This document shows positions 34,299-62,449 of a stretch of DNA of 64,000 nucleotides, one piece after another. The stretch covers positions 52,612 to 116,611 of the forward strand of contig JAMCSN010000229.1 of assembly GCA_023381535.1 (NCBI GenBank), given 5' to 3'. This DNA is from Bacteroidota bacterium. Lineage in GTDB: Bacteria > Bacteroidota > Ignavibacteria > Ignavibacteriales > Melioribacteraceae. Position 1 is the first letter of the stretch, and the number at the start of each line of letters is the position of its first letter. The notes under the pieces are model-generated. The model ran no database searches. It saw only the letters and a program-made list of their open reading frames with translations, and was not told the origin of the DNA. Both the position numbers and the translations under genes were made by a program.

Positions 34299-34308
34299 TG
34301 GGAATAGA

Positions 34309-35972: not shown

Positions 35973-35992
35973 AAAATTTTCCAGAGAAAAAA

Positions 35993-37284: not shown

Positions 37285-37292
37285 TATTTGAC

Positions 37293-38588
37293 ATGACAAG
37301 CAAAACAAAATTGCCGACTATACCGCTGGCTGAAAGATGCCGACCGAAAACCTTGGATGAGTTTCAAGGACAAGAAAAATTGGTCGGAGCGGGAAAACCG
37401 CTGCGGTCGATGATCGAATCGGATTCGCTAAGTTCAATTATTTTGTGGGGACCCCCCGGTACCGGGAAGACGACGCTTGCGAAAATTATTTCCGAAGCAA
37501 CGGATTCCGAGTTTTATCAGATCAATGCAGTTTCGTCTGGAGTGAAAGATATTCGGCAGATAATCGAGAGAGCAAAAAGCAATCTCGATCACTTCAAGAA
37601 AACCATTCTTTTCATCGATGAAATTCACCGGTTCAACAAAGCTCAGCAGGATGCACTTCTTTCATCGGTTGAAAATGGCGAGATTATTTTGATTGGTGCC
37701 ACGACAGAAAATCCATCGTTCGAAGTTATTCCGGCATTGCGTTCAAGGGTTCGGATATTTGTGTTGGAAGAACTGTCCAAAAACGATTTGCAGAATATTC
37801 TGAACTTCGCATTATCGAAAGATGAATTTTTGAGAAGCCTGAATATTGAATTAGCGGATCCGGATTATTTGATTTTCATCTCCGGCGGTGATGCGCGGAT
37901 TATGTTGAATATTCTCGAAGCTTCAATAGCGCAGGAAATCGACAAAGAGAAAATTGTAATTACAAAGTCGGTTATCGAAAACGTTATTCAGCGAAAAAAT
38001 ATTTTGTATGATAAAGCCGGTGAAGAACATTATAATATTATTTCGGCATTCATAAAAAGTCTTCGCGGTTCCGACCCAGACGCTGCCGTTTACTGGATGG
38101 CAAGAATGCTGGAAGGCGGTGAAGATCCGTTGTTCATAGCGCGTCGCATGGTAGTACTGGCTTCGGAAGATATCGGTAATGCATCGCCGAATGCTTTGTT
38201 GCTTGCGGAAGCTACGTTCAGTGCTGTTGATAAAATTGGAATGCCGGAAGCGCGAATAATACTTTCACAATGCGCGGTTTATCTTGCGTCGGCACCTAAA
38301 AGTAACGCATCATACATGGCGATTGATTCCGCTCTAAGCGATGTGAAAAATCTTCCTCAATATCAGGTTCCGTTTCATCTGCGAAACGCACCGACTAAGT
38401 TGATGAAGGAATTAGGATACGGAAAAGAATATAAGTACCCGCATTCGTTTGAAAATAATTTTCTTCAAGAAAATTATTTACCGGATGAGATAAAAGAAAA
38501 ACAGTATTACCTTCCTTCGGAAAACGGTAATGAAAAAAGCATTAAGGAACGTTTGAAAAATTTGTGGAAGGATTTAAAGAAGTACTAA
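37293..38588 (+). CDS. rarA: Replication-associated recombination protein A
   Basis: The 431-residue AAA+ clamp-loader-like ATPase has LAERCRPKTLDEFQGQEKL, Walker A GPPGTGKTT, Walker [11 protein letters not shown], sensor 1 GATTENPSFEV and the RarA C-terminal part (GSDPDAAVYWMARMLEGGED). It acts at stalled replication forks. It is the last gene of the aldolase-ddl-ftsB-rarA run. Confidence 0.95.
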   Translation: MTSKTKLPTIPLAERCRPKTLDEFQGQEKLVGAGKPLRSMIESDSLSSIILWGPPGTGKTTLAKIISEATDSEFYQINAVSSGVKDIRQIIERAKSNLDHFKKTILFIDEIHRFNKAQQDALLSSVENGEIILIGATTENPSFEVIPALRSRVRIFVLEELSKNDLQNILNFALSKDEFLRSLNIELADPDYLIFISGGDARIMLNILEASIAQEIDKEKIVITKSVIENVIQRKNILYDKAGEEHYNIISAFIKSLRGSDPDAAVYWMARMLEGGEDPLFIARRMVVLASEDIGNASPNALLLAEATFSAVDKIGMPEARIILSQCAVYLASAPKSNASYMAIDSALSDVKNLPQYQVPFHLRNAPTKLMKELGYGKEYKYPHSFENNFLQENYLPDEIKEKQYYLPSENGNEKSIKERLKNLWKDLKKY

Positions 38589-38634
38589 CATTTGACCTGT
38601 TATGTGAATTAGATATAGAAAGTTGAAACAATAA

Positions 38635-38766
38635 AGACAAAAGTAATTATTCAAAAATTCATCAGCGAAAATCATAAGAAATCCCCGCTTCGACTCGCTT
38701 ACTATTTAGAGCGAGGCGAGCGTTTGATCCGCGTTCCATTTTTCGATTAAAAAATTACTTTTGTCT
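38635..38766. repeat. MITE-like element with 14-bp terminal inverted repeats
   Basis: AGACAAAAGTAATT (38635-38648) and AATTACTTTTGTCT (38753-38766) are perfect inverted repeats around ~104 bases. The inside holds the second copy of the CCGCTTCGACTCGCT...AGCGAGGCGAG hairpin (38686-38722). No coding frame is seen. It lies between the convergent rarA and dprA genes and may also act as a terminator. Confidence 0.6.
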
Positions 38767-38791
38767 GAATGTTGATTAATTCACACAACGG

Positions 38792-39916
38792 TTAACATTT
38801 GATAAACATCTTTCCCGGCAGTTGTTTCACTACCTCTTTGAATTCCAGAGTTAACAAGTTCACCAAGCAATCCGAAATATTCATCGAAGTTGCTATTGCG
38901 ATGTCGTCAATGTGTTTCGGTTCTGTATCAAGAATTTCATAGACTTTTTGTTCAAACAAATTCAGTTCTATAGTGGGTCTACGTACTTTTTCTACCAAAT
39001 TTGGTTTTAGTTTTGCTTTGAGTTCAACCAATATGTCTTCGGGACACGTTACAAGTTTTGCCTCGGAACGCTGGATGAGAGAGTTCGGACCTTCACTTTG
39101 TATCACATTCACGTTTCCGGGCAATGCAAACACTTCACGGTTTTGATCTAGTGCGTAAGCGGCAGTTTGCATCGCACCGCCCGTAAACTTTGTCTCAATT
39201 ATAAGTGTTCCCAATGACAAGCCGGAGATAATTCTATTTCTTCGTGGAAAATTTTGCGCGTCCGGTTTTGTGCCTAAGGGAAATTCTGAAACAATGACGC
39301 CGCTTTCTTTTATCTTTTCAAATAATCCTCTGTTCTCCGGCGGATAAATTACATCTAAGCCGGAACCAATCACGGCAATTGTTCGGCCATTGGAATTGAG
39401 CGCTGAAGTATGTGCTATCGAATCAATCCCTCTTGCTAATCCGCTTACAATTGTAATTCCCTTAGCAACTAATTCGGATGCAAATTTTCCCGCTTGTATT
39501 TTGCCGTAGCTTGTCGGTTGGCGCGTTCCGACAATTGCAACAGAGTTTTTTTTATCCTCATCGCAAAAATCTCCAAGCGTATATAAAAGAAGCGGCGGGT
39601 AGTAAATACGTTTTAACAGTTCGGGGTAGTCATTATCCCAATACGAAATTAGCTCTCCACCCATTTTATTTAATTTATCTAATGATTTTTCCAATCCAGT
39701 CTTGATTTCTGAAATATTCTTCTTACCAGAACAAATTCTTCCGGCTAAAACTGTTCCAATGCCATCAGTTTCGCTCAAACCGCGGAACGGTGCATTTACA
39801 ATATTCTCGAATGAATGAAATTTTGATAGCAAGGAAAAAATTTTCTGCGGACCGATTCCTTCAACATCAAGCAGAAGTTTTAAGTAAGAAAGGTTTTCAA
39901 AGTCTTGATGAGACAA
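38792..39916 (-). CDS. dprA: DNA-processing protein DprA/Smf
   Basis: The 374-residue protein has an N-terminal SAM-like region (LLDVEGIGPQKIFSLLS), the Rossmann-like DprA core (VAIVGTRQPTSYG, GLARGIDSIAHTSAL, AVIGSGLDVIYPPENR, FPRRNRIISGLS) and a C-terminal winged helix. It loads RecA on single-stranded DNA in natural transformation. It may therefore help explain uptake of the foreign DNA seen elsewhere in the window. Confidence 0.95.
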   Translation of the reverse strand: MSHQDFENLSYLKLLLDVEGIGPQKIFSLLSKFHSFENIVNAPFRGLSETDGIGTVLAGRICSGKKNISEIKTGLEKSLDKLNKMGGELISYWDNDYPELLKRIYYPPLLLYTLGDFCDEDKKNSVAIVGTRQPTSYGKIQAGKFASELVAKGITIVSGLARGIDSIAHTSALNSNGRTIAVIGSGLDVIYPPENRGLFEKIKESGVIVSEFPLGTKPDAQNFPRRNRIISGLSLGTLIIETKFTGGAMQTAAYALDQNREVFALPGNVNVIQSEGPNSLIQRSEAKLVTCPEDILVELKAKLKPNLVEKVRRPTIELNLFEQKVYEILDTEPKHIDDIAIATSMNISDCLVNLLTLEFKEVVKQLPGKMFIKC

Positions 39917-40223
39917 TTTATTTTAATTTAATAATTGTTCAGCGTAGAAGCATAACCAATCATGTTTGTAAATTAAAAGGTATACATATCATTTGCAAGG
40001 TAAAGTGCGCATAACTTTCTATTAATGGATTCCCATTCTTCAAAAAGCCGCCGGTTAATTTTTTTTGCTTATGAAGGTTATTGCATAAATAATCAAACAA
40101 TAATTTATCCGCGTAAATCATAGCCTCGAACGACTGAGTCGGGCGGGCGCTCAATCTGTGCCTGAGCGCTGAAGTACTTCGGCATGAAAGCATGTCATTT
40201 GCGAGCTATTTTATAATAAAAGA
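39917..40223. repeat. Intergenic DNA with REP-like hairpins
   Basis: No gene is supported. GCGCTCA/TGAGCGC (40147-40153 and 40163-40169) and the palindrome GAAGTACTTC (40171-40180, with GC flanks) form two adjacent hairpins. A minus-strand frame of 77 codons runs over this block, but it has no ribosome site and covers the hairpins. Confidence 0.5.
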
Positions 40224-42452
40224 TTATTTATGCGGCAACTCACTATGAAGCCACGCTAAAACCATTCTTAATTTGCCGTAAGTTATTTCGTCCGGTGTTT
40301 TTTCTTTTATTCCTGCTAATCTTACATCGCTTAAATCTTCTGGAAAATACCCGGCAATTTTCCGCGCCTCTTCAATTGGAATTACTTCTTCGATACTTAT
40401 TAACTTTTGCCCGATTGCTTTCGCAAGATGACTTTCTATTGTGCTTATCACAAGATTTCTTTCCGCCGAAATTTGTTCGATGTTTTTACCCTCGCGAAAA
40501 TGTTTTATGGTTTCCGCAACAGTATCGGCTTTTACAGTCTTCCATCTTTCAGTTGTAACCTTGCTTCTCGTGAATGGGTTTTTTACATGGTGAGGCGGCT
40601 TTGCAGATTGTTCTGTTTTCCCAAAATTATTTTTTGCATTTGTTAGGTAGCCGTTCAATAAAAATCCGTTTCTGCAATAACTAATTTTTTTCAATACTTC
40701 TTGCAGCGCGGAAGAAATATCCTCAAGTAAGCTGTTTATTGTTTTCGTTAATTTTTTTGTCCCTGCTGAAAATGAATAATTGAAAAACTCCTTTTCCCAT
40801 TTACATATTTCATCAAAAAAATAATTCGCGCCGCGTTTAACCCTTTGCTGAAGCGCTTCGTTTTCTTCAATGAGTTTTCCATACTGTTGCGAATCAAAAC
40901 TCAACCGTCTAATTTCTTCTTTGAATTTTTCTGCCGTTTCATACAGCTCATTTTGCTTGTCAATTGATTCAATAATCCATGAGACTGCATCAACAGAAAT
41001 TTTACTTTGGTTTTCAAGAAGGACATCTTTTAATTCCTGCAACCCGTAATACCAGTTCCTCCATGTAAAAATGTTTTGTAACTCCTGGATTATAAATTTG
41101 TCCCTTGCTTCTATAAAAGCTTGCTGAAGATTTGTGTTGTAATTATTATCCTCCCATTCTTTTAAGCACTCGTGCGCGCCGAGTATATTTATGTTAACCG
41201 GACTGGCAAGCACCAAGCCTTCAAGTGAGGTACAACGGCTTAACGCAACATAAACTTGCCCGGTTGCAAATGCTCTCTCGGCGTCGATAATTACTTTGTC
41301 GAAAGTTAAGCCCTGGCTTTTGTGAATTGTAATTGCCCATGCAAGCCGCAGCGGGTAATGGGTGAATGTTCCGATAACCTCTTCTTTAATTTCTCTTGTC
41401 TCCGGGTTTAATATGTAGCGAATATTTTGCCATTCGCTTTTCTTCACTTCTATCTCATACGGATCGTCTTTGCATTTAACCCTAATTTCATTTTGGTTTA
41501 TGTTTGTTATTACGCCGATTTTCCCGTTGAAATATTGTTTTCCCTCGTTGTCGTTCTTTAAGAACATCACCTGCGCGCCGCGTTTTAATTTCAATCCACT
41601 TTCAACCGGGAATAAATGTTCGGGAAATTCGCCAATTACGTCGGGACGGAAAATATATTCGCGCGATAAAAGAGCATCCATTTTTCTTTTGTTAATTTCA
41701 TCGGATTGGTAATTGTGAGTGGTGAGAATAATGTATCCTTCGCTGTTCTGCAGCAAAAAATTTCTGTTAATTCGACTGTTCAACAACTTGAAGCTCTCTT
41801 CCGTAATGTCGTTATTGCGGATGCCGTTCAGTATCTCGATAAATTTATCATCCCTTTGCCTGAAGATTTTTTTTAGTTCAATAATAACTGGGATGTTATC
41901 ACGGAGAATTAAGCTGTCGAAGAAAAACGGCGACGAATAAAAACTTTCCAGAGTTTCTCGGTCTTCATTTTTAACAACTGGCGGAAGCTGGTAAAGATCG
42001 CCAATAAATAAAACTTGTACGCCGCCGAATGGCTCGTCCGGTTTTTTTCTTATGAAACGTAAAATTGAATCAACAGCATCAACTAAATAACATGGCAGCA
42101 TACTTGCTTCATCTATAACAAGTAATTCCATGCTGCGGAGAAGATTTAATTTTTCCTTGTGATAATGTATCTTAGTTAAAAGCGGGTGAAGTTTGTTTTC
42201 CTCCTTAAACGGAAAGGGAGGTATAATGCCAAGTGGAAGTTGAAATAGTGAATGTAATGTTACACCATGAGCGTTTATTGCGGCTACGCCCGTTGGTGCA
42301 GCAATTACAATTTTTTTTACCGAGTTTTCTCGAAGATATTTCAGGAAAGTTGTTTTACCTGTTCCCGCTTTGCCTGTCAAAAAAATATTCCGGTTCGTCT
42401 CTGTAACAAAACGATAAGCGAGATTAAATGTTTCCGTACGTATTATATCCAT
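40224..42452 (-). CDS. Pif1-like helicase with C-terminal HTH
   Basis: The 742-residue protein is a superfamily 1B helicase of the Pif1/Dda type. Walker A GKAGTGKTT is at 27-35, with APTGVAAINAHGVTLHSLF, motif II VIDEASML, motif III FIGDLYQLPPV and motif VI VYVALSRCTSLEGL. After a coiled-coil middle part (about 490-560) it ends in an HTH_40/RQC-like domain (HFREGKNIEQISAERNL, then IESHLAKAI). Pif1-like proteins unwind G-quadruplexes and resolve stalled forks. The C-terminal HTH is common in the Bacteroidota branch. Confidence 0.92.
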   Translation of the reverse strand: MDIIRTETFNLAYRFVTETNRNIFLTGKAGTGKTTFLKYLRENSVKKIVIAAPTGVAAINAHGVTLHSLFQLPLGIIPPFPFKEENKLHPLLTKIHYHKEKLNLLRSMELLVIDEASMLPCYLVDAVDSILRFIRKKPDEPFGGVQVLFIGDLYQLPPVVKNEDRETLESFYSSPFFFDSLILRDNIPVIIELKKIFRQRDDKFIEILNGIRNNDITEESFKLLNSRINRNFLLQNSEGYIILTTHNYQSDEINKRKMDALLSREYIFRPDVIGEFPEHLFPVESGLKLKRGAQVMFLKNDNEGKQYFNGKIGVITNINQNEIRVKCKDDPYEIEVKKSEWQNIRYILNPETREIKEEVIGTFTHYPLRLAWAITIHKSQGLTFDKVIIDAERAFATGQVYVALSRCTSLEGLVLASPVNINILGAHECLKEWEDNNYNTNLQQAFIEARDKFIIQELQNIFTWRNWYYGLQELKDVLLENQSKISVDAVSWIIESIDKQNELYETAEKFKEEIRRLSFDSQQYGKLIEENEALQQRVKRGANYFFDEICKWEKEFFNYSFSAGTKKLTKTINSLLEDISSALQEVLKKISYCRNGFLLNGYLTNAKNNFGKTEQSAKPPHHVKNPFTRSKVTTERWKTVKADTVAETIKHFREGKNIEQISAERNLVISTIESHLAKAIGQKLISIEEVIPIEEARKIAGYFPEDLSDVRLAGIKEKTPDEITYGKLRMVLAWLHSELPHK

Positions 42453-42639
42453 ACAACTTTTATCTCACTAACTATTTTAGGGAAACTTTTTGTTCAGATT
42501 GTGCTGTACTATGTAAGGAATTATTCCGTATTGTGCAAAAAATTAGTAGTCTTTAGCAGTTGCTCTAATACTTCCTCAATTCCGAGATAAGAATAATGAT
42601 ACGAATCAGAAACATGTTTTCTTAGTTTTGGTCTATATC

Positions 42640-42802
42640 GCCCCGATGGGGGCTTTATTCTTAACGGCTTTTGCTTTTTTATAAATATCCATCACCTACG
42701 GTGTTTTTGTCCCGGCAGGGACAGTATCTTTTTAGAATTTTGATTCAAAAACGATTGTTAAAATTCCGTAGGAACGATATAAAATATCTCACCTATTAGG
42801 TG
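42640..42802. repeat. REP-like palindrome array
   Basis: Five short palindromes occur in 160 bases: GCCCC-gatg-GGGGC (42640-42653), CACC-tac-GGTG (42693-42703), GTCCC-ggca-GGGAC (42709-42722), TTCC-gta-GGAA (42764-42774) and CACCTA-t-TAGGTG (42790-42802). The remainder of the 42453-42890 gap is AT-rich with no gene; it should hold the promoters of the divergent helicase and SWIM genes. Confidence 0.65.
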
Positions 42803-42890
42803 AAGTTTTCTGAATAATACTTGGCTTCTATTTGTTTATCTTTCATTCCGAGGCAATTGTCTATCAAGCCAAAGATAGGAAATAAGAAAA

Positions 42891-43568
42891 ATGACACTTC
42901 ACGATTTTAAAGAAAACATATCGCCCGTTATTCTTGAAAGAGGTTACAAATATTTTGTCAACAAGCAAGTTGAGAACTTAGAAGAAATTGAAAATGGGCA
43001 CTGGGATGCAGAAGTGACAGGAACAGATGAATATTTTGTAACCGTAATTATGAACAACGATGAGATAGTAGAGTGGGAATGCGATTGCCCATTTGAAGGT
43101 GAGATATGTAAGCATGTTGTGGCGGTACTGTTTGCCGTTTCGGAAAAACAATCATCGAACGAAAAAACAACTGCTGGAAATAAAACCCCGCAAAAAAATA
43201 AGAAGAATGACATCAATATGATTTTCGAAAAAGCGACAAAAGAAGACCTTCGCAAATTCGTTGTATCGCAATTCTCAAAACGGCATGGTTTGAAAGATGC
43301 TTTCATTGCTCAATTTGCTGATATGCTTGATTATGATGTTGATTCTAAATATAAAATTATTATAAAAAACGCCGTTAAATCGGCAATGGGAAGAAATGGA
43401 TTCATCGATTACAGTTCGGCTAATGCGCTTGTGAAATCAATAGAAGATATTCTAGACAAAGCAGAAGAATTGCTCGAAGGAAAAAATCTTGTGGAGAGTT
43501 TGTCCATTTGTAAAACTGTTAAGGTACTAAACAAAAATAGTTTGTACAAAACGATGTGCATTAAGTGA
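42891..43568 (+). CDS. SWIM zinc-finger protein, C-terminally truncated
   Basis: The 225-residue protein has an N-terminal region and a SWIM finger with ligands Cys64, Cys66, Cys73 and His75 (ECDCPFEGEICKHVVAV). SWIM proteins of this type usually go on for several hundred residues of helical repeats. Here, after AEELLEGKNLVESLSICKTV, the sequence turns into a short unrelated tail (VLNKNSLYKTMCIK) and stops. I read this as truncation at about 43522. The remaining part may still bind DNA or protein. Confidence 0.75.
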   Translation: MTLHDFKENISPVILERGYKYFVNKQVENLEEIENGHWDAEVTGTDEYFVTVIMNNDEIVEWECDCPFEGEICKHVVAVLFAVSEKQSSNEKTTAGNKTPQKNKKNDINMIFEKATKEDLRKFVVSQFSKRHGLKDAFIAQFADMLDYDVDSKYKIIIKNAVKSAMGRNGFIDYSSANALVKSIEDILDKAEELLEGKNLVESLSICKTVKVLNKNSLYKTMCIK

Positions 43569-43618
43569 AAGAGGAAAAAACAAACATTGAGTATTACTCT
43601 ATAGAAAGTCTATATCTA

Positions 43619-43894
43619 TTATTCGCTAATCTCAATATTATCTACAACAGCAGTAATCATGGTGTTTACAGGTGTTTTTGTATTTCCTAAAATTTGTTGC
43701 ACAGCATCGCCTTCTTGAACCACAATCACGTTGTCGCCTATTCCCGCATCAACTAAATCAAGTGCAACAACGTCTTTCTTACCAATGAACTTTCCCGTAT
43801 AGTCAATCTGATGCGCTAATAAAAGTTTGTGCCCAATTAGGTATTTGTTCTTTGGAGTCGAAACAATATTCCCCTTAATTTTTGCTAGAAACAT
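43619..43894 (-). CDS. EutN/CcmL-family microcompartment vertex protein
   Basis: The 91-residue protein fits the pentameric vertex family: MFLAKIKGNIVSTPKNKYLIGHKLLL at the start, ALDLVDAGIGDNVIVVQEG in the middle. Five copies close each corner of a polyhedral shell. No shell hexamer (BMC-H) gene is next to it, so it is an orphan here; the acylating aldehyde dehydrogenase at 17646 would suit such a compartment. Its start overlaps the upstream gene by 20 bases. Confidence 0.9.
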   Translation of the reverse strand: MFLAKIKGNIVSTPKNKYLIGHKLLLAHQIDYTGKFIGKKDVVALDLVDAGIGDNVIVVQEGDAVQQILGNTKTPVNTMITAVVDNIEISE

Positions 43895-44156
43895 CAGCGT
43901 CTCTTCGAAACTTTTTCGGCAACTTGAATACTATAGAAAGTGGTATGATTATCAGATAAGCCACCAAAAGAATGATGGGGGAAATCGAAAGAGATATTGG
44001 ATTATCCCACGGACCTTTTGACATCAGAATATATCCAATAACTAGAACGCCGATACCGGCATAAAGAGTATAATAATTGTACTTATCCCAATAATCTTTG
44101 AATGGGGATGTTTTCATTTTGTTAGTTTGTTTGATATTTCTCTTTTCCTTTGCCAT
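43875..44156 (-). CDS. Small two-helix membrane protein (DUF3098-like)
   Basis: The 93-residue protein has a basic, hydrophilic start, then two membrane helices (about 31-48 and 56-78; TLYAGIGVLVIGYILM, IILLVAYLIIIPLSIVF) and a basic end. It resembles DUF3098 proteins of Bacteroidota, of unknown function. The end of the gene overlaps the vertex-protein gene by 20 bases, and a strong promoter lies upstream, so the two form a small operon. Confidence 0.68.
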   Translation of the reverse strand: MAKEKRNIKQTNKMKTSPFKDYWDKYNYYTLYAGIGVLVIGYILMSKGPWDNPISLSISPIILLVAYLIIIPLSIVFKLPKKFRRDADVSSKN

Positions 44157-44520: not shown

Positions 44521-44764
44521 TTTACATTCTCCATCGAATTCTCTTATAATCTTAAAACAGAATTACTATTTCTGTTCCCAGGCATATTTCAACTAACCCC
44601 AAATCCATTATATCACACACTACTTTTTTATCTTCAAAAGTTCCGCATCTATTGTTTCGCATTTCACCTTTAACGCTAGATTGATTTTATTTATTTTATG
44701 ACATATTTGTTCTATTATATAAAACAAAATTCTTAATTAAAGTTCTAATTTGCTTTTGAGGGTT

Positions 44765-45454
44765 ATGAATTCTCGCTTCTTTACAAATGAAAATGAGAAT
44801 ACTCTTCTTAATAAAATTGAGGGGATCTTCAGTCACCGCGATATTTACTTTTTAGATGCTCTTGTCGGTTATTTCAGAGCTTCCGGTTATTTCAGAATCA
44901 GAAAGTTTATAGAAAAAACTTCCCTTGTAAGAATCCTTGTTGGTATTAATGTTGACCATCTTATCTATAAAGCCCGGAAGGAAGGACTTTTATTTGATGA
45001 AGATCGCGAAAAATCTCAAGACCAATTTTTCAACGAGACAAAGAAAAACATTCAGCAATCTTTTTATGATAAAGAAATTGAAAGCGGAATTCTTAACCTC
45101 ATAGACGATATTTCGAAAAAACGAATTCAAATTCGCGTTCATCCTTCAAAAAATATTCACGCAAAAATTTACATCTTCCGGGAAAAAGAAAAACATGAGC
45201 ATGGTTATGGCGTTGTAATCACCGGTTCGAGTAATCTAACCGAAGCCGGTCTCGAAAAGAATTTCGAATTCAATGTTGAATTAAGAGATAATGCCGATAT
45301 TGATTATGCAACTGAAACTTTTGATAAACTCTGGAGCGAAGGAGTAGATTTAAGCTTCGATTATGTTGAACGGCTTAAAAAAGAAACCCCGAATTTCTTC
45401 GGGGTCAAACTAACGATGCTATCGTTAGCGGTATTAAACTTGTTACAAACATAA
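44765..45454 (+). pseudogene. N-terminal PLD domain of a helicase-like defence protein, truncated
   Basis: The 229 codons code for a phospholipase D-like domain: IYFLDALVGYFRASGYFRI, then HAKIYIF (His132-x-Lys134) and GSSNLTEAGL (Gly154 on), with FEFNVELRD after it. This is the opening of large (about 1,000-residue) SNF2-type helicases found in restriction/defence islands. Here it stops after YVERLKKETP, and the last ~20 codons run into two hairpins. The helicase body is missing. The PLD part alone may still fold. ATG 44765 has GAGGG upstream; TTG 44750 is possible. Confidence 0.75.
45387..45428. repeat. Two hairpins at the break of the PLD gene
   Basis: CCCCGAA-tttc-TTCGGGG (45387-45404) and CTAACGAT-gct-ATCGTTAG (45410-45428) lie back to back and supply the false C-terminus of the truncated PLD gene. 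They may be a REP insertion or a scar at the deletion point. Confidence 0.65.
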
Positions 45455-45485
45455 CTTTTTCTTTTTGCATTTGTTAGAGTCGTTT

Positions 45486-46040
45486 ATGAAAAAATCATCT
45501 CTGCTGCCTTCTGAACTCATTGAGACTAAAATATTATTTATCCGCGGTCAAAAAGTAATGATCGATTCCGATCTTGCTAAATTATATGGCGTTTCTACTA
45601 AAGCTCTCAATCAAGCGGTAAAACGCAATTTTGAAAGGTTTCCTCTTGATTTCATGTTCGAATTGACCACTAAAGAGAAAAAGGAACTGGTCACAAATTG
45701 TGACCACCTCAAAGGACTTAAATTTTCTTCTACCTTGCCTAAGGTCTTCACCGAACACGGCGCTATTATGCTTGCTTCGGTCTTGAATTCTCAAAGAGCC
45801 GTTGAAGCTAGTATTTATGTCGTTCGCGCTTTCGTCCGTTTGCGCGAAGTTTTGGCTTCTCATAAAGATCTTGCGCTAAAGCTCAAAGAACTTGAATCGA
45901 AAATTGAAACTCACGATGAACAGATCAAAGATATTATAGACGCTATTAACCAGCTTATTTTACCGCCGGAAAAACCAAAACGCCAAATCGGTTTTCAAGT
46001 GAAAGAGCCAACTCAAAAATATTCCTCAAAAAAGAAATGA
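45486..46040 (+). CDS. ORF6N-domain protein
   Basis: The 184-residue protein has an ORF6N domain at the start (ILFIRGQKVMIDSDLAKLYG, NRFP-like NFERFPLDFMFEL, KVFTEHGAIMLASVLNS) and a C-terminal coiled coil with a basic tail. The family is DNA-binding, common in phages and in mobile defence islands, where it often lies between restriction genes. ATG 45486 is chosen over an upstream TTG. It overlaps the next frame by four bases (ATGA). Confidence 0.85.
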   Translation: MKKSSLLPSELIETKILFIRGQKVMIDSDLAKLYGVSTKALNQAVKRNFERFPLDFMFELTTKEKKELVTNCDHLKGLKFSSTLPKVFTEHGAIMLASVLNSQRAVEASIYVVRAFVRLREVLASHKDLALKLKELESKIETHDEQIKDIIDAINQLILPPEKPKRQIGFQVKEPTQKYSSKKK

Positions 46041-47215
46041 CAGAATCCGAACTCAAATCCCAGCTTCAAAAGAAGTATAATCATTCAATTTGGAAGGACA
46101 TTCTAACTTCCATTTTCCCGAAAATCGACTATTTATTATATCCAACTATTCTAGCAGAAAAAACAGATACTGCAAAGTTTGTCCGGCAAATTGGCAATCT
46201 TCCAATCGTTCCGATCACAGATCTTGCAATAAAAAATGAAGACTTGATTGTAGCAACACAGGGCAGAGCATTCTGGATGATAGATGATATTTCTCCTCTT
46301 CGTTTATTGAATGCTGATATAATGAAGAAAAATTATCATTTGTATCCGCCGCGGAAAACATATCGAATTGACGGCAGTAGCCGTGGTGATGGAACTACTT
46401 CCGGAAAAAATCTGCAAAGCGGTGTTATTATAAATTATTATTTCAAAGAAATGCCGGATAGTAATTCTGTTGAATTGAAGATTGCCGATTCCAGCGGAAG
46501 AGTTATTAATTCATTCAAACCAAAAACAAAAGAACGCGATGTTCGCCTTCCTATAAAGAAAGGATTGCAGCGATTTATTTGGAATATGCGTTATCCCGAT
46601 GCAGAAAAATTTGATGGAATGATTATCTGGAGCAGAGGAGGATTGACCGGACCGCAGGCAATTCCCGGTGAATACAAAGCAACTTTAATTTATGGTAAAG
46701 ATAGTTCAACAGTTCCATTTGTAATTGTAAAAGATCCTCGTTCGTCTGCTACGCAGGAAGATTTGCAAGCTCAGTTCGAATTTGTTTTAACAACACGGGA
46801 TAAATTAACTGAAATTCACAAAGCGATTAAGCTGATCAGAAACATTCGGAAACAGATTAACGGTGTAAACGAACGAATTAAGAATTGGAAGGATGCCGAT
46901 GAAATTAAAAAATCCGGCGAAGAGATTAATAAAAAAATCACAGCAATTGAAGAAACATTATACCAGACAAAAAATAAAAGTCCGCAAGATCCACTAAATT
47001 TTCCAGTTCGATTGAATGATAAACTTTCTTCGCTTAATGGTTCGGTGGAGAGCGGAGATTTTCAACCAACAGAGCAATCGTATAAAGTAAAAAATGAATT
47101 AGTTGCAAAGATTGATGCCGAACTGAAAAAACTAAATGAGCTTGTTGAAATTGAGATTCCGAAATTCAATGAAATCGTTAACCAGGTTAAAGTTCCGGCA
47201 GTAATTTTAAATTAA
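46037..47215 (+). CDS. Chimeric ORF: methyltransferase-like N-terminus joined to VPS10/sortilin-like C-terminus
   Basis: The 392-residue frame is made of two parts. Residues 1 to about 52 (ESELKSQLQKKYNHSIWKDI, FPKIDYLL, KFVRQIGN) resemble the start of Eco57I-type restriction methyltransferases and have no signal peptide. From about residue 53 (LPIVPITDLAIKNEDLIVAT, GRAFWMIDD) to the end it matches the C-terminal third of sortilin/VPS10-like 'glycosyl hydrolase' proteins: the last blade, a sheet domain (IINYYFKE, GLQRFIWNMRYP) and a C-terminal helical part. A VPS10 protein needs export; this one has no signal. I take it as a deletion fusion near 46193, probably not functional. Confidence 0.7.
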   Translation: MTESELKSQLQKKYNHSIWKDILTSIFPKIDYLLYPTILAEKTDTAKFVRQIGNLPIVPITDLAIKNEDLIVATQGRAFWMIDDISPLRLLNADIMKKNYHLYPPRKTYRIDGSSRGDGTTSGKNLQSGVIINYYFKEMPDSNSVELKIADSSGRVINSFKPKTKERDVRLPIKKGLQRFIWNMRYPDAEKFDGMIIWSRGGLTGPQAIPGEYKATLIYGKDSSTVPFVIVKDPRSSATQEDLQAQFEFVLTTRDKLTEIHKAIKLIRNIRKQINGVNERIKNWKDADEIKKSGEEINKKITAIEETLYQTKNKSPQDPLNFPVRLNDKLSSLNGSVESGDFQPTEQSYKVKNELVAKIDAELKKLNELVEIEIPKFNEIVNQVKVPAVILN

Positions 47216-47321: not shown

Positions 47322-48188
47322 ATGAACATAAGAACAAGATTTATATTTATCTCTTTAATTGCGATTTACTTTCTAACAAATGTTGCCTTAGTAGCCGTAA
47401 CAGAAAAAGTTAAATCCAAAGATGGAGTTGAAATTGCTTACACGGTTGAAGGCAGCGGTGAACCCGCGCTTGTTTTCATTCACGGATGGAGCTGTGATAG
47501 ATCTTATTGGGATAACCAAGTAAAAACATTTTCACCAAAGTACAAAGTTGTAACGATCGATTTAGCCGGTCACGGTGAATCCGGAATGAACAGAAATAAT
47601 TATACGATGGAACTGTTCGGAGAGGATGTTGCCACAGTTGTAAACAAACTGAAACTCAAAAAAGTAATTCTTATCGGTCACTCAATGGGTGGTTATGTTA
47701 TCATTGAAGCCGCTAGAAGGTTGCCGGGAAAAGTTATAGGACTTATTGGAGCCGATACATATCAGGGTATTGAAGACGAAATGACGCCTGAACAAATTGA
47801 TAAATTCATAAAGCCTTTCAAGGAAAATTTTATTGAAAAGACAAAGGAATTTGTGAAAACAATGTTTCCACCGACTGCGGATTCTGCATTAGTGAAGAAG
47901 GTTTCCGATGATATGTCGGCAGCACCTCCTCTAGTTGCAATTAGTGCATTACAAAATTTGTTTGGTTACCACGCTTTTGCATCTATGGAAGACACCAACA
48001 CGCCGATTATTTCTATTAACTGTGATCGGTATCCAATCAATGTAGAAGAAGCTCGTAAACATGTAAAATCGTTTGAAGTAAGAATGATGAAAGGCATTGG
48101 TCATTTTGTGATGCTTGAAGATCCGGATAAGTTTAATCAACTTTTGCAAGAAGCAATAAATGAATTAATCAAAAAAATTAACGAATAA
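47322..48188 (+). CDS. Secreted alpha/beta hydrolase, copy 1
   Basis: The 288-residue protein has a signal peptide (about 1-27) and an alpha/beta-hydrolase fold: oxyanion motif FIHGWSCDRSYW, GHGES, nucleophile Ser121 in GHSMGG and the catalytic His in GIGHFVMLE. The substrate is unknown. It is 13 bp from a close paralog; long stretches of DNA are nearly identical between them, a recent tandem duplication. Confidence 0.87.
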   Translation: MNIRTRFIFISLIAIYFLTNVALVAVTEKVKSKDGVEIAYTVEGSGEPALVFIHGWSCDRSYWDNQVKTFSPKYKVVTIDLAGHGESGMNRNNYTMELFGEDVATVVNKLKLKKVILIGHSMGGYVIIEAARRLPGKVIGLIGADTYQGIEDEMTPEQIDKFIKPFKENFIEKTKEFVKTMFPPTADSALVKKVSDDMSAAPPLVAISALQNLFGYHAFASMEDTNTPIISINCDRYPINVEEARKHVKSFEVRMMKGIGHFVMLEDPDKFNQLLQEAINELIKKINE

Positions 48189-48200
48189 CGGATTATAAAA

Positions 48201-49055
48201 ATGAAAAGCAGAAAGAATATGTTTTTACTCGGGGTGTTAATAATTTTATTCAGCGCTAATTTTACTCTTGCCTCAAACGTAGAAAAAGTAAAATCAAAGG
48301 ATGGTGTTAATATCGTTTATACTGCCCAAGGCGTTGGCGCACCAGCAATTGTATTTGTTCATGGATGGAGCTTAGATAAATCAATTTGGAATAACCAGGT
48401 TAAAGTATTTTCACCAAAGTACAAAGTTGTAACGATCGATTTAGCTGGTCATGGTGAATCCGGAATGAACAGAAAAAATTATACAATGGAATTGTTTGGC
48501 CAAGACGTTGCCGATGTAGTAAATAAACTCAAATTGGAAAAAGTAATTCTGGTTGGACACTCAATGGGAGGTTCTGTTATTCTTGAGGCTGCCCGTATAT
48601 TAAAAGAAAAAGTTATCGGGTTAATTGGGGCAGACACGTTTCAAAAATTTGAAAAAGGTGAACCGGCAAAACGCGCAGAAGAATATTTAACAACATTTAA
48701 AACCAATTTTGTCGGAAGTACAAAAGATTATGCAAGTATGCTTTTCCCGCCAAACGCGGATACTACACTGGTGAATAAAATTTTAAAAAAAATGACATCT
48801 GCTAACTCTAAAATTGCAATAGATGTAATGAGGAACTCTTATCAATACAATGCAATTGCTGCGGTTAAGGAACTGCGTATTCCAATCATTTCAATAAATT
48901 GTGAAATGTTCCCAGTCAAACTGGAAGAGAATCGCAAGTACATAAAATCATTCGAAGTGAATATAATGAAGGGAGTTGGTCATTTTGTTATGCTTGAAGA
49001 TCCGGCAAAATTCAATCAGCTTCTTCAAGAATCTATTGATGAGTTAACTAAATAA
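48201..49055 (+). CDS. Secreted alpha/beta hydrolase, copy 2
   Basis: The 284-residue protein has a signal peptide (about 1-24) and the same motifs as its upstream paralog (FVHGWSLDKSIW, nucleophile Ser121 in GHSMGG, GVGHFVMLE). The region around 48409-48480 matches 47533-47604 with few changes, while the cap region (about 145-230) has drifted, which suggests change of substrate range after duplication. Confidence 0.87.
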   Translation: MKSRKNMFLLGVLIILFSANFTLASNVEKVKSKDGVNIVYTAQGVGAPAIVFVHGWSLDKSIWNNQVKVFSPKYKVVTIDLAGHGESGMNRKNYTMELFGQDVADVVNKLKLEKVILVGHSMGGSVILEAARILKEKVIGLIGADTFQKFEKGEPAKRAEEYLTTFKTNFVGSTKDYASMLFPPNADTTLVNKILKKMTSANSKIAIDVMRNSYQYNAIAAVKELRIPIISINCEMFPVKLEENRKYIKSFEVNIMKGVGHFVMLEDPAKFNQLLQESIDELTK

Positions 49056-49077
49056 CAAACTATAAGGAAAATAGAAT

Positions 49078-49575
49078 ATGTTCAAAACGATCAACGATTT
49101 TTTAGAGGGCTGGAAATATGAGAGTGAAGCAACACTCAAAGTTTTTCAAAATTTGACTGATGAATCTCTCAAGCAAAAAGTTACTGAAAATGGGCGTTCA
49201 CTTGGATTTATAGCATGGCATATAACAAATACAATTCCGGAAATGCTGTCTAAAACCGGACTGCCATTTGGAATGCTCGAAGAATCTTCCACGCCCAATT
49301 CTGCCAAAATTATTTTTAATGAATATGAAAAAGCATCTAAAGCTGTCAATGAGTTAATATCAAAATTATGGACAGATGAAATGCTGAAAGATGATATTAA
49401 CATGTACGGTCAAGTTTGGAAGCGCGCAAATGTTCTATCAAGTCTTATTGCCCATCAAACACATCACCGCGGACAAATGACTGTGCTTATGAGACAGGCT
49501 GGCTTGAAGGTTCCGGGCGTTTATGGTCCCGCAAAAGAAGAGTGGGCGGCTATGGGAATGCCTGAACAGGAATGA
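49078..49575 (+). CDS. DinB-like four-helix protein
   Basis: The 165-residue protein fits the DinB/YfiT family: metal-binding histidines His48 (AWHITN), His126 and His130 (AHQTHHRGQM). These proteins bind a metal between helices and are often thiol S-transferases or unknown. It follows the hydrolase pair after 22 bp and is likely in the same transcript. It is the last gene before the foreign-looking block. Confidence 0.85.
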   Translation: MFKTINDFLEGWKYESEATLKVFQNLTDESLKQKVTENGRSLGFIAWHITNTIPEMLSKTGLPFGMLEESSTPNSAKIIFNEYEKASKAVNELISKLWTDEMLKDDINMYGQVWKRANVLSSLIAHQTHHRGQMTVLMRQAGLKVPGVYGPAKEEWAAMGMPEQE

Positions 49576-49707
49576 AATTAATATTTTTTTGCTCTATTTA
49601 ATAAAAATTGATGCTACCGGGCGAAGGGGATAAAAAAGCTGGTAACCGAAGTGGAACCAATGTAAAGCCATCCGGAAGAAATACTTGCTCATGAAGATTT
49701 TAAATAA

Positions 49708-50325
49708 TCAGATAAAATGCAACTGAGCAGCAGTGCGAATCAATAAAGCAGTATTCTTTGCTTTAAATTTTGCCAGCAGGTTTTTACGGTGGGAATCAAC
49801 AGTTGTAGTACTGATGAAAAGCTTTTGTGCAATTTCAGCGTTGGTCAATCCATCTGCTATCAGCTCCAACACTTCTTTTTCACGCCTTGTGATCACAGGT
49901 ATTTCCGACTCTGCATATTTGCGTAGTGATAAGGCGGCTTCATCGCTTAAATAGGTTTTTCCTTTGGCAACAGCTTGTATGGCTTCCATCAATTCTTCCT
50001 GTGTAGCATTTTTCAATACATAACCGGAAGCTCCGTTATCCATCATTTTTTGAATAAAGCTTTGCTGGTTAAATGTACTCAGCCCAATTATAAATACAGA
50101 GGGATATTTTTCTTTTACTTCTTTGCACAACTCAATACCGCTTTTGCTGGGCATGCTAATGTCCATCAGGATCACATCAGGCAATTGCTTCCGCAAAAAA
50201 GCAAGACATGAATCCGCGTTTGATGCATGACCCATCCACTCAATACTTTTTTCGTTTTGTAGTAAAGAGCGGATGCCTTCCACCACCATGTAGTGATCGT
50301 CTGTTATAAAAACTTTAATCGGCAT
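49708..50325 (-). CDS. NarL/LuxR-type response regulator
   Basis: The 205-residue protein has a receiver domain with DD at 9-10 and phosphorylation site Asp55 (VILMDISMPSKSG), and a C-terminal LuxR helix-turn-helix (TRREKEVLELIADGLTNAEI, then STTTVDSHRKNLL). It begins directly after the stop of the kinase gene. It probably controls the divergent secreted-protein genes from 52455 on. Confidence 0.93.
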   Translation of the reverse strand: MPIKVFITDDHYMVVEGIRSLLQNEKSIEWMGHASNADSCLAFLRKQLPDVILMDISMPSKSGIELCKEVKEKYPSVFIIGLSTFNQQSFIQKMMDNGASGYVLKNATQEELMEAIQAVAKGKTYLSDEAALSLRKYAESEIPVITRREKEVLELIADGLTNAEIAQKLFISTTTVDSHRKNLLAKFKAKNTALLIRTAAQLHFI

Positions 50326-52278
50326 TTAAACATTTAATTCAATTAATACAGATGTTCCTTTACCGGGTTCTGAATTTACATCTAATTTTCCTTTTAAGAA
50401 ATCAAGCCGGTTCTGAATATTTGTCCAGCCTATACCGTCTGTTCCTTTAATGATGGATGTATCAAAACCTCTTCCATCATCTTCCACTGTAACCGTGAGC
50501 TGATGCTCTGATTTTGTAACCTGCACAATAGCATGTTTTGCAGCAGCATGTTTCATGGTATTATTGATGAGCTCCTGCACAATACGATAAATGGTAATGG
50601 CAGTTGTTTGATTGATTGCTGCATTTTCAATCCCTATTGATTGATAGGAAACCTGCAAAGCGCCCGATTGATTTATATCGTTACAAAAATCTTTTAATGC
50701 TGTATCCAGTCCAAATTTTACCAATGCTTCGGGCATCATATTATGAGCTACACGGCGCATTTCTTTTATGGAACTGTCCAGCATATCCATACTGCGTTCA
50801 AATGCCCGTGCGTTGTCAGGCGTCATTATTAAATTTCCTTTCATAGTATTAAATGAATATTTTATTCCAGATAACATTCCACCCAGTCCATCGTGAAGGT
50901 CTTTTGCAAGGCGGGTTCGTTCCTGTTCTTCTCCTTTCAGCACTGCTTCAGTGGCAGTGAGTTGTTGTTGAGTTTCTAATTCGCTGATGCGATGCTGCTG
51001 GAGTTTTTGTTTTTGTTTGTAGTTACGATAGCTGAGTAATGAAATGAGCAGTAAAGTTGCAGCACTCCCAAAAAGTATATAATTCAAAATACTCTTTTGC
51101 CGGATAGACAATTGCTGCACTTTTTTTTCCGCTTCTAATTGTTTTATCAGACTTTCCTTTTTCTCCGTTTCATATTTTATCCGCATCCCCGTTTCTTTTT
51201 GTTTCAGTGATTCACTAAATACTGCACTTTCAACTTTGGCCCTTTGATAATAAAAATCAAACCCTTTGCGGATGTCTCCGGCAACGAAAGCAATATTTGA
51301 AAGCATCCCCAATGCCGAGGCCTTCCCTTCGAGTAGGTTCTGTTTGCCTGCAATATCCAATACCTCAAGCGCCAGGTTTTGAGCCTTTACAAAATCCTTA
51401 TTATTCAGAAAATAAACAGATAGTGCCAGTTTAGATCCCATTATACCACCACTATCGGCCAGTTCTGTGTTTAAACGTAGCGCCCTGTCTGCATAATACT
51501 TCAACAAGTCAATTTTGTTTTCCCTTTGGGCTATTTCACAAAGATTATTAAGCACAATGGCTTCGCCTGATTTATTGCCGTTATCTACAGCTATTGCAAG
51601 AGCTTCATCATACAATCGTTTTGCATCCTGCAGGCGGCCTAACTCCGTATAAGAAAGCCCAAGATTATTAAGTGAATTCAGCAACGGCGTTTTATCCTTT
51701 AATTTTCTGCCAAGTTCAACTGCTTTTGTTCCATACTGAATAGCCTTGTCATATTGCATCAAACTCATATATAAGGACTGCAAACCATCATTTAGATTAA
51801 CCTCAATATTGTCATACCCCTTACCTCCAAGAATATTCACTCCATCAATTGTGTATTGCAATGCACTCTCCAAATCAGAAATATACCGGTAAGCAATTCC
51901 TATATTAAAAAGTGACACACCTATATTAAAAGTGTCCTTTCTTTGCCGGGCAATTTCCAGCACCCGCTTATTGTAATAAATAACTGAATCAAACTTTGAC
52001 TGATAAGCATACACATATGAAAACAATCGGTAAGATTTCAGAATACCTTTTTCATAGTTGATTTTTTTGCTTAAGTCGCTTGCTAACCGGATATAGTACT
52101 TGGCTTTTTCGGGTTCTGAATTCTCGTACTGTTCTCCAATGGCAAAAAGCAGATTGGCTTTGTTAGTATCTTCTTTTGCAGCTGGAAGCAACTTGATCAA
52201 ACTATCCCCTTTTTCAACCTGTCCTTTTGCAATTACAGTTGAAATAAGAAACACCAGTATAAAAACAGTTTTTCTCAT
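50326..52278 (-). CDS. TPR-containing NarX-type sensor histidine kinase
   Basis: The 650-residue protein has a signal peptide (VIAKGQ), seven or so TPR repeats (about 25-350) in the periplasm, a coiled coil, a membrane helix (about 413-430) and a HisKA_3 domain with the phospho-acceptor His in KDLHDGLGGML. It ends in an ATPase domain (VEDDGRGFDTS, GIGWTNIQNRLDFL). The TPR part suggests it senses a protein or peptide outside. ATG 52278 is chosen because the longer frame adds a non-signal leader. Confidence 0.9.
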   Translation of the reverse strand: MRKTVFILVFLISTVIAKGQVEKGDSLIKLLPAAKEDTNKANLLFAIGEQYENSEPEKAKYYIRLASDLSKKINYEKGILKSYRLFSYVYAYQSKFDSVIYYNKRVLEIARQRKDTFNIGVSLFNIGIAYRYISDLESALQYTIDGVNILGGKGYDNIEVNLNDGLQSLYMSLMQYDKAIQYGTKAVELGRKLKDKTPLLNSLNNLGLSYTELGRLQDAKRLYDEALAIAVDNGNKSGEAIVLNNLCEIAQRENKIDLLKYYADRALRLNTELADSGGIMGSKLALSVYFLNNKDFVKAQNLALEVLDIAGKQNLLEGKASALGMLSNIAFVAGDIRKGFDFYYQRAKVESAVFSESLKQKETGMRIKYETEKKESLIKQLEAEKKVQQLSIRQKSILNYILFGSAATLLLISLLSYRNYKQKQKLQQHRISELETQQQLTATEAVLKGEEQERTRLAKDLHDGLGGMLSGIKYSFNTMKGNLIMTPDNARAFERSMDMLDSSIKEMRRVAHNMMPEALVKFGLDTALKDFCNDINQSGALQVSYQSIGIENAAINQTTAITIYRIVQELINNTMKHAAAKHAIVQVTKSEHQLTVTVEDDGRGFDTSIIKGTDGIGWTNIQNRLDFLKGKLDVNSEPGKGTSVLIELNV

Positions 52279-52454
52279 ACAGTAAAATAGCCTTTTACGC
52301 TTGTAGCACAAATAAACTTTTTTCCAAACTGCCTGCACTCCCCTTTTTCCATGATTTTCTTGATTTGTGAAAATATCCTGTTTTTCGGGGATAGTTCTTG
52401 AACGGATATATTTTTATATATAACATACAAAAAATAAAAAATTAAAGTCATTAC

Positions 52455-52922
52455 ATGAAAAGATACATTTTACTAAACGCGATACTCTTCTTTTTAGCTT
52501 TACAAGGCTTTGCCCAAACCAAGCCAAAAACGACTGTAAAGCAATCCGTACCGGAACTAACAAGGCTAATAACCGGCACAGGCTTGCCTTATAAGATAGT
52601 AAACAACAGTGTGGCTCTTATACCTTACGAAGGGAAAAACATTGCTGCATACGATGTAGTGGTACAAGAAATAAGCGACCTCTATATTGTTTACACCAAC
52701 CTTACCGAAGCCCTGCCCGGAAAGATTGACGATACAAAATACAAATACCTGCTGCAACAGAATGATCATTTTGATATTATTAAAATAGGAATGAGCACAG
52801 ATAATAATACGGTTTATGTAAGGGCGGATGTGTATAAAGCCGGTATAACAACTGCCCTGCTGGCCAGGATTATCAAGCAGGTAGCTAATGTCAGCAATAT
52901 TATTGGTGGCGATTTAAAATAA
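52455..52922 (+). CDS. Small secreted protein, YbjN/secretion-chaperone-like fold
   Basis: The 155-residue protein has a signal peptide (ending GFAQ) and a single alpha/beta domain (LTRLITGTGLPYKIVNNSVA, HFDIIKIGMSTDNNTVYVRA, ALLARIIKQVANVSN). The strand/helix order looks like the YbjN/type III chaperone fold, but this is a pattern match only. It is the first gene of the divergent row after the kinase and is 28 bp before the next. Confidence 0.6.
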   Translation: MKRYILLNAILFFLALQGFAQTKPKTTVKQSVPELTRLITGTGLPYKIVNNSVALIPYEGKNIAAYDVVVQEISDLYIVYTNLTEALPGKIDDTKYKYLLQQNDHFDIIKIGMSTDNNTVYVRADVYKAGITTALLARIIKQVANVSNIIGGDLK

Positions 52923-52950
52923 ATGAAATGTATAAAAATTGGTATTTAAA

Positions 52951-54984: not shown

Positions 54985-55009
54985 ATTATTAAAAATATAG
55001 GCGCAAAAA

Positions 55010-55996: not shown

Positions 55997-56031
55997 CAAA
56001 TATGATAAAGACATTTTGAAAAAAAACTGCC

Positions 56032-62445: not shown

Positions 62446-62449
62446 ATGT

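What the first reader, a model, noticed from the sequence alone, without database searches (positions are those of the whole stretch)
46037..47215. Chimeric ORF: restriction methyltransferase start joined to a sortilin/VPS10-like end
The first ~52 residues read like the start of an Eco57I-type methyltransferase (FVRQIGN is the usual lead-in to its core). From about residue 53 the frame is the C-terminal third of a sortilin-like propeller protein (VPITDLAIKNEDLIVATQGR). The two parts belong to different compartments, and the frame is kept across the join at about 46193. It is either a deletion scar or a newborn fusion gene.
Basis: partly seen in the sequence, partly recalled or inferred. Interest (0 to 1): 0.75.

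Follow-up and report, generated by a model that had tools for sequence, protein, structure and literature searches.

The report
Scar where foreign DNA joined
This odd gene is most likely a recombination scar, where a piece of another genus's chromosome was joined into a broken DNA-modification gene in a defence island beside a ribosomal RNA operon; it shows how such islands decay and trap foreign DNA, but it is probably not a new working protein.

Summary
The chimera is real in the sequence. Residues 1-53 are the start of a ~1180-aa Eco57I/type IIG-like enzyme (73-85% identical in three genomes). Residues 54-392 are the last third of a ~1037-aa sortilin/BNR propeller protein (95% identical to genome G001). 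Relatives hold both genes apart; no protein with both parts was found. The upstream helicase gene has lost its interior between two short direct repeats (12 nt in genome G025, which keeps both; the window keeps one, 11 nt long). The sortilin piece is foreign: the window's chromosome groups with G106 (100/100), the piece with G001 (100/99), while G106's own copy is 69% identical. A 16-kb block from the join to an IS element replaces the middle of the restriction-modification island, whose right part reappears before a 16S gene. The join has 3-6 nt of exact match, depending on the relatives compared. Best reading: illegitimate recombination of foreign DNA, perhaps anchored by the IS, into a decaying defence operon; the kept frame is probably luck (1 in 3). 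An assembly artefact cannot be excluded without reads, but shared strings at the join are at most 13 nt. Interest low to moderate.

The parts
32246..44123 (.). Native chromosome, colinear with G002:C96 (L078) with gaps, the largest 39889-43627
   Evidence: blastn; genome searches. G106 is the closest genome (86-94%) where its contigs cover the window's left side, but they end at window 34793
44750..45387 (+). 5' part of a PLD-type SNF2 helicase gene (PLDc_2 domain kept)
   Evidence: Pfam; 44993-45387 is 87% to L046 8491-8097; helicase domains in L046
45377..45387 (+). Join 1: the single 11-nt copy of a short direct repeat, left by deletion of about 2.7 kb of helicase
   Evidence: L046 has two 12-nt copies 2702 bp apart; window matches L046 on both sides
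45465..46040 (+). ORF6N-domain gene (PADLOC PDC-S05); its stop overlaps the chimera's start (ATGA)
   Evidence: Pfam PF10543 E 2e-30; PADLOC; 77% nt to L045
46037..46195 (+). N-terminal 53 codons of an Eco57I/type IIG-like restriction-modification enzyme
   Evidence: 85% to G002 (L041/L045) and G025 (L042/L046), 73% to G024 (L043/L047)
46195..46208 (+). Join 2 (the finding): zone where both parents resemble the window; frame kept
   Evidence: alignments
46196..47215 (+). C-terminal third of a sortilin/BNR propeller protein
   Evidence: 94% nt and 95% aa to G001 (L001), 88% aa to G002, 87% aa to G110, 69% aa to G106
47322..49596 (+). Two alpha/beta hydrolases and a DinB-family gene of the same G001-like segment
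   Evidence: 46196-48176 is 90% and 49077-49596 93% to L001; 48281-49045 (second hydrolase) 71%; DinB Pfam; hydrolase naming is mine
49708..60688 (.). Response regulator, histidine kinase, TPR, PD40 and lipocalin-like genes
   Evidence: Pfam (response regulator naming is mine); TPR protein in 0 of 164 genomes of the order, 1 of 395 of a phylum sample at 39%; nearest relatives
60835..62461 (+). IS element with DDE_Tnp_1 transposase (reading frame broken), terminal inverted repeats
   Evidence: Pfam; inverted repeats 60835-60851/62445-62461; 93% partial copy in G097
62461..63509 (+). Right part of the restriction-modification island: 3' end of a 196-aa gene, then a 223-aa gene
   Evidence: 89-91% to L045 1865-829 and L047 2005-951
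63845..64000 (+). Start of a 16S rRNA gene
   Evidence: Rfam RF00177

Best explanation
The ORF is a recombination junction, not an evolved protein. The host (G106-like) carried a defence island next to an rRNA operon: PLD-helicase, ORF6N, type IIG-like enzyme, small genes, 16S. The helicase lost 2.7 kb between two short direct repeats. A foreign fragment from a G001-like genus, starting inside its sortilin gene, was joined by illegitimate recombination, with only a few nucleotides of homology, inside the methyltransferase gene, replacing island DNA up to an IS element that sits in a 196-aa island gene. The likely, inferred route is homology-facilitated illegitimate recombination: one end anchored by homology (here perhaps the IS), the other end joined at little or no homology. 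The join happens to keep the frame, and the ORF inherits the methyltransferase's start codon, which overlaps the ORF6N stop. If translated, the product is a cytosolic, catalytically dead remnant. Shown: the two parents, the helicase deletion, the foreign ancestry, the island context. Inferred: the order of events, the IS anchor, lack of function.
For: Both parents are full length in relatives. Phylogenetic conflict: native gene window+G106 100/100, sortilin part window+G001 100/99. Native DNA is 92% to G106 (3.1 kb aligned) and 74% to G001 and G002; the sortilin part is 94% to G001 and 71% to G106; G001 and G002 differ by 10-12% in native DNA and 13% in sortilin, so the gene is not unusually conserved. 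The helicase deletion ends at a repeat present twice, 12 nt long, in L046; a random join gives 12 nt or more of overlap in 5e-6 of trials. The right part of the same island reappears at 62461. G002 and G110 show the native flank followed by a 16S gene about 0.5 kb further on. Third-position GC is 0.45 and 0.42 in two native genes, 0.29-0.36 in ten island and block genes. At join 2 the parents' relatives share exact runs of 5 nt or more in 6 of 9 pairs. The definition of homology-facilitated illegitimate recombination is from passages of PMC3240628.
Against: No reads and no second assembly of this junction were available. With the nearest donor (G001) the exact run at join 2 is only 3-4 nt, which a random join reaches in 7% (3 or more) to 2.6% (4 or more) of trials; 5 or more 0.9%, 6 or more 0.3%, so the microhomology is suggestive only. 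The block (16.3 kb) and the replaced DNA (5.4 kb in L045, 6.4 kb in L047) are far above the ~1 kb average quoted for the process. No second IS copy was shown in a donor or in an intact island; 3 of 164 genomes of the order match it at E <= 1e-20. G106's contigs do not reach beyond window 34793, so the flank next to the island is placed by colinearity with other genera only. A left-flank gene at 40224 also has lowish third-position GC, 0.37. The sortilin part shows no relaxed selection (window branch 14 synonymous, 9 non-synonymous; G001 branch 22 and 8; Fisher p 0.38), which fits a recent event but also a kept function. The ancestral arrangement at this exact site is inferred from other genera.
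Confidence: 0.68

Rival explanations
1. Assembly or library chimera: the contig wrongly joins DNA of two co-occurring species.
For: The two sides belong to different genera. The block ends at an IS and the island at an rRNA gene, both classic misassembly points (recalled). No protein spanning both halves was found among the 120 listed of 563 hits, and the search with residues 1-70 gave one hit, a methyltransferase fragment.
Against: The longest exact string shared by the island-left part and the block is 13 nt, and the longest repeat touching the join within the window is 11 nt, below usual assembler k-mers (recalled). The contig leaves the block back into the same island and then reaches a 16S gene, as this flank does in G002 and G110. 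The neighbouring join is a clean repeat-to-repeat deletion.
Confidence: 0.17
2. Newborn functional fusion gene: the methyltransferase start now drives a new cytosolic protein made of the sortilin C-terminal domains. (This concerns function and does not exclude the recombination origin.)
For: Frame kept, ATGA overlap with ORF6N, C-terminal part predicted with confidence (179 of 392 residues at pLDDT 90 or more), no sign of relaxed selection.
Against: Single occurrence in what was searched; residues 1-56 under pLDDT 50; N-terminal two thirds of the sortilin parent lost; upstream helicase also wrecked; a 1-in-3 chance of frame needs no selection.
Confidence: 0.06
3. Deletion between two neighbouring genes, either of one chromosome's own genes or as a second step after foreign DNA had entered next to the island.
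For: The neighbouring helicase deletion shows that such events occur here; the few shared nucleotides at join 2 fit it too.
Against: For the one-chromosome form: the sortilin part is of foreign ancestry. The second-step form remains open and overlaps with the best explanation.
Confidence: 0.2

Closest known systems
Eco57I-like / type IIG restriction-modification enzymes (Pfam PF07669; PADLOC REase_MTase_IIG)
   Same: Residues 1-53 and the start codon context come from such a gene
   Different: The methyltransferase domain is gone
Sortilin-Vps10 / BNR Asp-box propeller proteins (Pfam PF15902)
   Same: Residues 54-392 are the C-terminal third
   Different: About 690 N-terminal residues with most of the propeller are missing; the chimera has no hit to PF15902
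Insertion-deletion junctions of homology-facilitated illegitimate recombination
   Same: Foreign DNA and coupled loss of recipient DNA; definition from passages
   Different: Much larger insert and loss than the average quoted; homologous anchor not demonstrated; microhomology only suggestive
Short-direct-repeat deletions (slippage type, recalled)
   Same: Helicase join lies at one copy of a repeat present twice in L046
   Different: Nothing unusual

Membership tests
Eco57I / type IIG enzyme | N-terminal region homologous to the family's full-length proteins | tested here: met
   4 of 164 genomes match, 3 of them strongly
Eco57I / type IIG enzyme | Eco57I methyltransferase domain | tested here: not met
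   No such Pfam hit in the chimera; present in L045 (485-769) and L047 (495-800)
Sortilin-Vps10 / BNR protein | Asp-box propeller matched by PF15902 | tested here: not met
   No hit in the chimera; met by the 1037-aa parent L002
Sortilin-Vps10 / BNR protein | C-terminal region homologous to full-length members | tested here: met
   39 of 40 loci continue upstream in the same manner (L017 is cut by its edge after 5 residues); 33 of 40 frames at least 800 aa
Homology-facilitated illegitimate recombination product | Inserted DNA is foreign | tested here: met
   Trees and identities, for the first 3.4 kb of the block
Homology-facilitated illegitimate recombination product | Insertion coupled with loss of recipient DNA | tested here: met
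   L045/L047 island parts on both sides, the middle replaced; assumes the recipient island resembled these
Homology-facilitated illegitimate recombination product | 3-10 bp microhomology at the illegitimate end | tested here: inconclusive
   Longest exact runs in 9 pairs of parental relatives: 3, 4, 4, 5, 5, 6, 6, 6, 6 nt; true parents unknown
Homology-facilitated illegitimate recombination product | Homologous anchor at the other end | tested here: inconclusive
   IS at 60835-62461 with unrelated sequence on its two sides, but no second copy found in the parents
Homology-facilitated illegitimate recombination product | Naturally competent host | not tested
   Host genome not held
New functional fusion gene | Conserved in more than one genome | tested here: not met
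   0 of the 120 listed of 563 proteins, 0 of 40 sortilin loci, 0 of the 4 genomes with the N-terminus among 164
New functional fusion gene | Purifying selection since fusion | tested here: inconclusive
   Ka/Ks 0.116 to G001; cannot be dated to before or after the join
Assembly chimera | Shared repeat long enough to mislead an assembler | tested here: not met
   At most 13 nt shared between island-left and block
Assembly chimera | Reads fail to span the join | not testable with these tools
   No reads available

The most novel reading that the evidence does not exclude
A fusion gene caught at birth by gene transfer between genera: foreign DNA captured by illegitimate recombination put an exported propeller protein's C-terminal domains under the start and operon of a defence enzyme, in frame, making a new cytosolic protein that the cell now keeps. 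More widely, rRNA-adjacent defence islands would act as traps in which broken restriction-modification genes capture foreign chromosome pieces.
Probability: 0.07. Interest if true: 0.55.

Novelty: new member of a known kind. Interest (0 to 1): 0.24.

Why it matters
It shows, with relatives of both parents in hand, how a defence island next to an rRNA operon loses its restriction system and takes in chromosome DNA from another genus. It also warns that a one-off 'fusion protein' in sequence data may be a recombination scar: the test that told most was comparing the ancestry of the sortilin half with that of the flanking chromosome.

Tried and rejected
Own genome: none is held. Viral contigs: no confirmed relative of the chimera or of the TPR protein at 52939. 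Plasmids: no match for the TPR protein. NCBIfam on five pieces: no hit above a curated cut-off; the helicase remnant gave a weak anti-phage phospholipase-D model (32 bits, cut-off 1100). A PADLOC hit of the chimera to LmuB (E 9e-4), in its predicted helical part, was judged chance. The fold search of the predicted model gave 3 matches at E <= 0.001, the best TM normalised by the query 0.18, mostly generic immunoglobulin-like folds, so it tells nothing on function. The full-length sortilin parent L002 matched 5 distinct solved sequences, mostly BNR-repeat or cellulase-like proteins. P0241, the only hit to residues 1-70, is a methyltransferase fragment from a 924-base contig with a different tail, not the same fusion. 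The protein searches do not list the chimera itself, though another protein of this window is listed from a 118,332-base contig; clustering under a longer protein is a possible reason, so its absence is not used as evidence on assembly. Papers: ORF6N with restriction-modification gave 0 papers; three further listings held nothing that I used; I used one paper, seen as abstract start and passages only. These searches cover the held open library only. A one-chromosome deletion model was set back when the sortilin part proved foreign. The confidences do not add to one because the rivals overlap with the main reading.

Full report
Observation. The ORF 46037-47215 is present as described. Its first 52 residues match the N-terminus of long open frames in 4 of 164 genomes of the order of G001: 85% in G002 and G025, 73% in G024, and a weak 41% in G128. 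The first three encode proteins of 1161-1181 aa; the G002 and G024 copies were scanned and carry the Pfam Eco57I domain and type IIG enzyme models of PADLOC. Residues 54-392 match 40 loci, confirmed out of 64 pattern stretches. In 39 of 40 the frame runs on upstream for at least 24 residues in the same sortilin-like manner (judged by eye on the last 40 residues); L017 has 5 residues before its edge. 33 of 40 open frames are 800 aa or longer; 8 are cut by contig edges. L002 gives the whole parent: 1037 aa, Pfam Sortilin-Vps10, of which the chimera keeps the last third.

No protein with both halves was found. In one search, 120 of 563 hits were listed. Of 124 alignments to those 120, 6 start before residue 50: five are sortilin-like proteins whose alignment runs a little further upstream, one is a chance 29-residue match. 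Residues 1-53 alone against the 120 gave nothing better than E 0.09. The 443 unlisted hits were not seen. A search with residues 1-70 gave one protein, P0241, a methyltransferase fragment.

The join. The window follows the methyltransferase up to about 46208 and the sortilin gene from about 46195. In 9 pairs of parental relatives the longest exact run in that zone is 3 to 6 nt: 3-4 with G001, the nearest donor, and 5-6 with G002 and G110. In random joins of an AT-rich relative, 3 nt or more occurs in 7%, 4 or more in 2.6%, 5 or more in 0.9% and 6 or more in 0.3% of trials. Microhomology is therefore suggested, not shown; the true parental sequences are unknown.

A second scar. About 800 bases upstream, the ORF 44750-45454 carries only the PLD domain of a helicase. 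In G025 (L046) the helicase is open over at least 1014 aa. The window matches L046 8491-8097 and then jumps to 5405-5327. L046 has the same 12-nt string at both places, 2702 bp apart; the window has one, shorter by one A (11 nt). This looks like an ordinary short-repeat deletion: 12 nt or more of overlap arises in 5e-6 of random joins. Losing the helicase before the methyltransferase would be the safe order for a restriction system; that order is inference from recalled biology.

The island. In G002 (L045) and G024 (L047) the order is helicase, ORF6N, methyltransferase, small genes, a 196-aa gene, a 224-241-aa gene, 16S rRNA. In the window the right part of this island starts at 62461, inside the 196-aa gene, and runs to a 16S gene at 63845. 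Between the chimeric join and 62461 lies a 16.3-kb block; it stands in place of 5.4 kb of L045 or 6.4 kb of L047. Its last 1.6 kb is an IS element with inverted ends and a DDE_Tnp_1 transposase in broken frame. On its left the IS lies 147 bp after the end of a lipocalin-like ORF; on its right it cuts the 196-aa gene. The left flank of the island, up to 44123, is colinear with G002:C96 and G110:C3, and in both a 16S gene follows about 0.5 kb further on. The small gene at 44272-44520 is not seen there; its relatives are in G024 and G025. In G024 the corresponding genes are followed by another region in the fetched stretch, a long ORF of a different kind (that stretch was not scanned for RNA), so the rRNA neighbourhood may not be universal.

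Foreign ancestry. Native DNA of the window is 92% identical to G106 (3.1 kb aligned) and 74% to G001 and G002; the sortilin part is 94% identical to G001, 87% to G002, 85% to G110, and 71% to G106's own copy. G001 and G002 differ by 10-12% in native DNA and by 13% in sortilin, so the gene is not unusually conserved. Trees agree: for the protein of 30804-33278, window with G106 at 100/100; for the sortilin part, window with G001 at 100/99 (10 and 11 rows). G110 carries its copy on a 2.56-Mb contig, so the donor group does not rest on small contigs alone. G106's matching contig ends at window 34793, so the last 10 kb before the island are placed by colinearity with other genera. From 49.7 to 60.8 kb the block changes again: its TPR protein is found in 0 of 164 genomes of the order and in 1 of 395 of a phylum sample, at 39% (the tool warns that an empty answer without a positive control shows little). 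In the protein collection its nearest relatives, after the window's own, are an 87% match named Melioribacteraceae, an 86% match without a name and an 83% match named Chitinophagaceae (120 of 580 listed). Third-position GC is 0.45 and 0.42 in two native genes, 0.37 in a third left-flank gene at 40224, and 0.29-0.36 in ten island and block genes.

Function. The chimera has no Pfam match above cut-off. AlphaFold2 leaves residues 1-56 under pLDDT 50, while 179 of 392 residues, in the C-terminal part, reach 90; the fold search shows mostly generic immunoglobulin-like folds. The sortilin part has Ka/Ks 0.116 to G001; on the window branch 14 synonymous and 9 non-synonymous changes, on G001's 22 and 8 (Fisher p 0.38). 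This shows purifying selection over the history as a whole and suggests a recent join; it does not show present function. The start codon overlaps the ORF6N stop, as in L045 and L047, so some translation is plausible. If made, the product would lack the parent's N-terminus, which reads like a signal sequence (my reading of L002).

Mechanism. Homology-facilitated illegitimate recombination joins incoming linear DNA by homology at one end and, in most cases, at 3-10 bp of microhomology at the other, with loss of recipient DNA (passages of PMC3240628 seen; in that paper's own E. coli clones, 3 of 4 junctions had no homology). The window has the foreign DNA and the coupled loss; the microhomology is suggestive. 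The anchor is not shown: the IS is the candidate, but 3 of 164 genomes of the order match it at E <= 1e-20. Sizes are far larger than the average 1 kb quoted. A two-step route is also open: insertion of foreign DNA beside the island, then a deletion that made the join.

Artefact. No reads were available. Against a k-mer misjoin: at most 13 nt are shared between the island-left part and the block, and the longest repeat at the join is 11 nt; the contig returns to the same island and reaches a 16S gene. For an artefact: IS and rRNA sequences are classic trouble spots (recalled), several key relatives are metagenome bins by their record titles, and the rRNA-leader part of the window is 96-98% identical to island-bearing contigs of G002 and G024, genomes that are otherwise 26-35% different from the window, which could mean transfer or misbinning. 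I put artefact at about 0.17.

Verdict. It is most likely a recombination scar joining foreign DNA to a decayed defence operon, a new example of a known kind of event.

Noticed in passing
window 44750-45454: Second, hidden junction: helicase interior deleted between two copies of a short direct repeat (12 nt in L046, 11 nt left in the window), leaving a PLD-only remnant.
   Followed up: yes
L046 4682-5296 versus L045 7443-7997: The slot between helicase and type IIG-like enzyme holds an ORF6N gene in G002, G024 and the window, but a different 204-aa gene in G025, although the enzyme reads nearly identical in G002 and G025: perhaps a cassette-exchange slot.
   Followed up: partly
L045 and L047: By eye, the type IIG-like proteins of G002 and G024 share their N-terminus but diverge strongly after it, as if later parts had been swapped.
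   Followed up: no
window 62461-64000: Island right end, rRNA leader and 16S start are 89-98% identical to island-bearing contigs of G002 and G024, genomes that are otherwise 26-35% different: the island may travel with rRNA-flanking DNA, or the bins are wrong.
   Followed up: partly
window 60835-62461: IS element with its transposase in two overlapping frames; it lies 147 bp after a lipocalin-like ORF on its left and cuts a 196-aa gene on its right.
   Followed up: partly
window 52939-54984: By eye, the TPR protein looks mosaic against P0122 and P0123: long near-identical stretches alternate with diverged ones.
   Followed up: no
window 47322-49055: Two alpha/beta hydrolase-like genes in tandem, 69% identical in DNA; in L001 one related gene is split into two ORFs and an 804-aa gene follows instead of the second.
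   Followed up: no
P0241: Methyltransferase N-terminus of about 226 residues (by eye) followed by a different tail, on a 924-base contig: perhaps another broken copy of the same gene.
   Followed up: no
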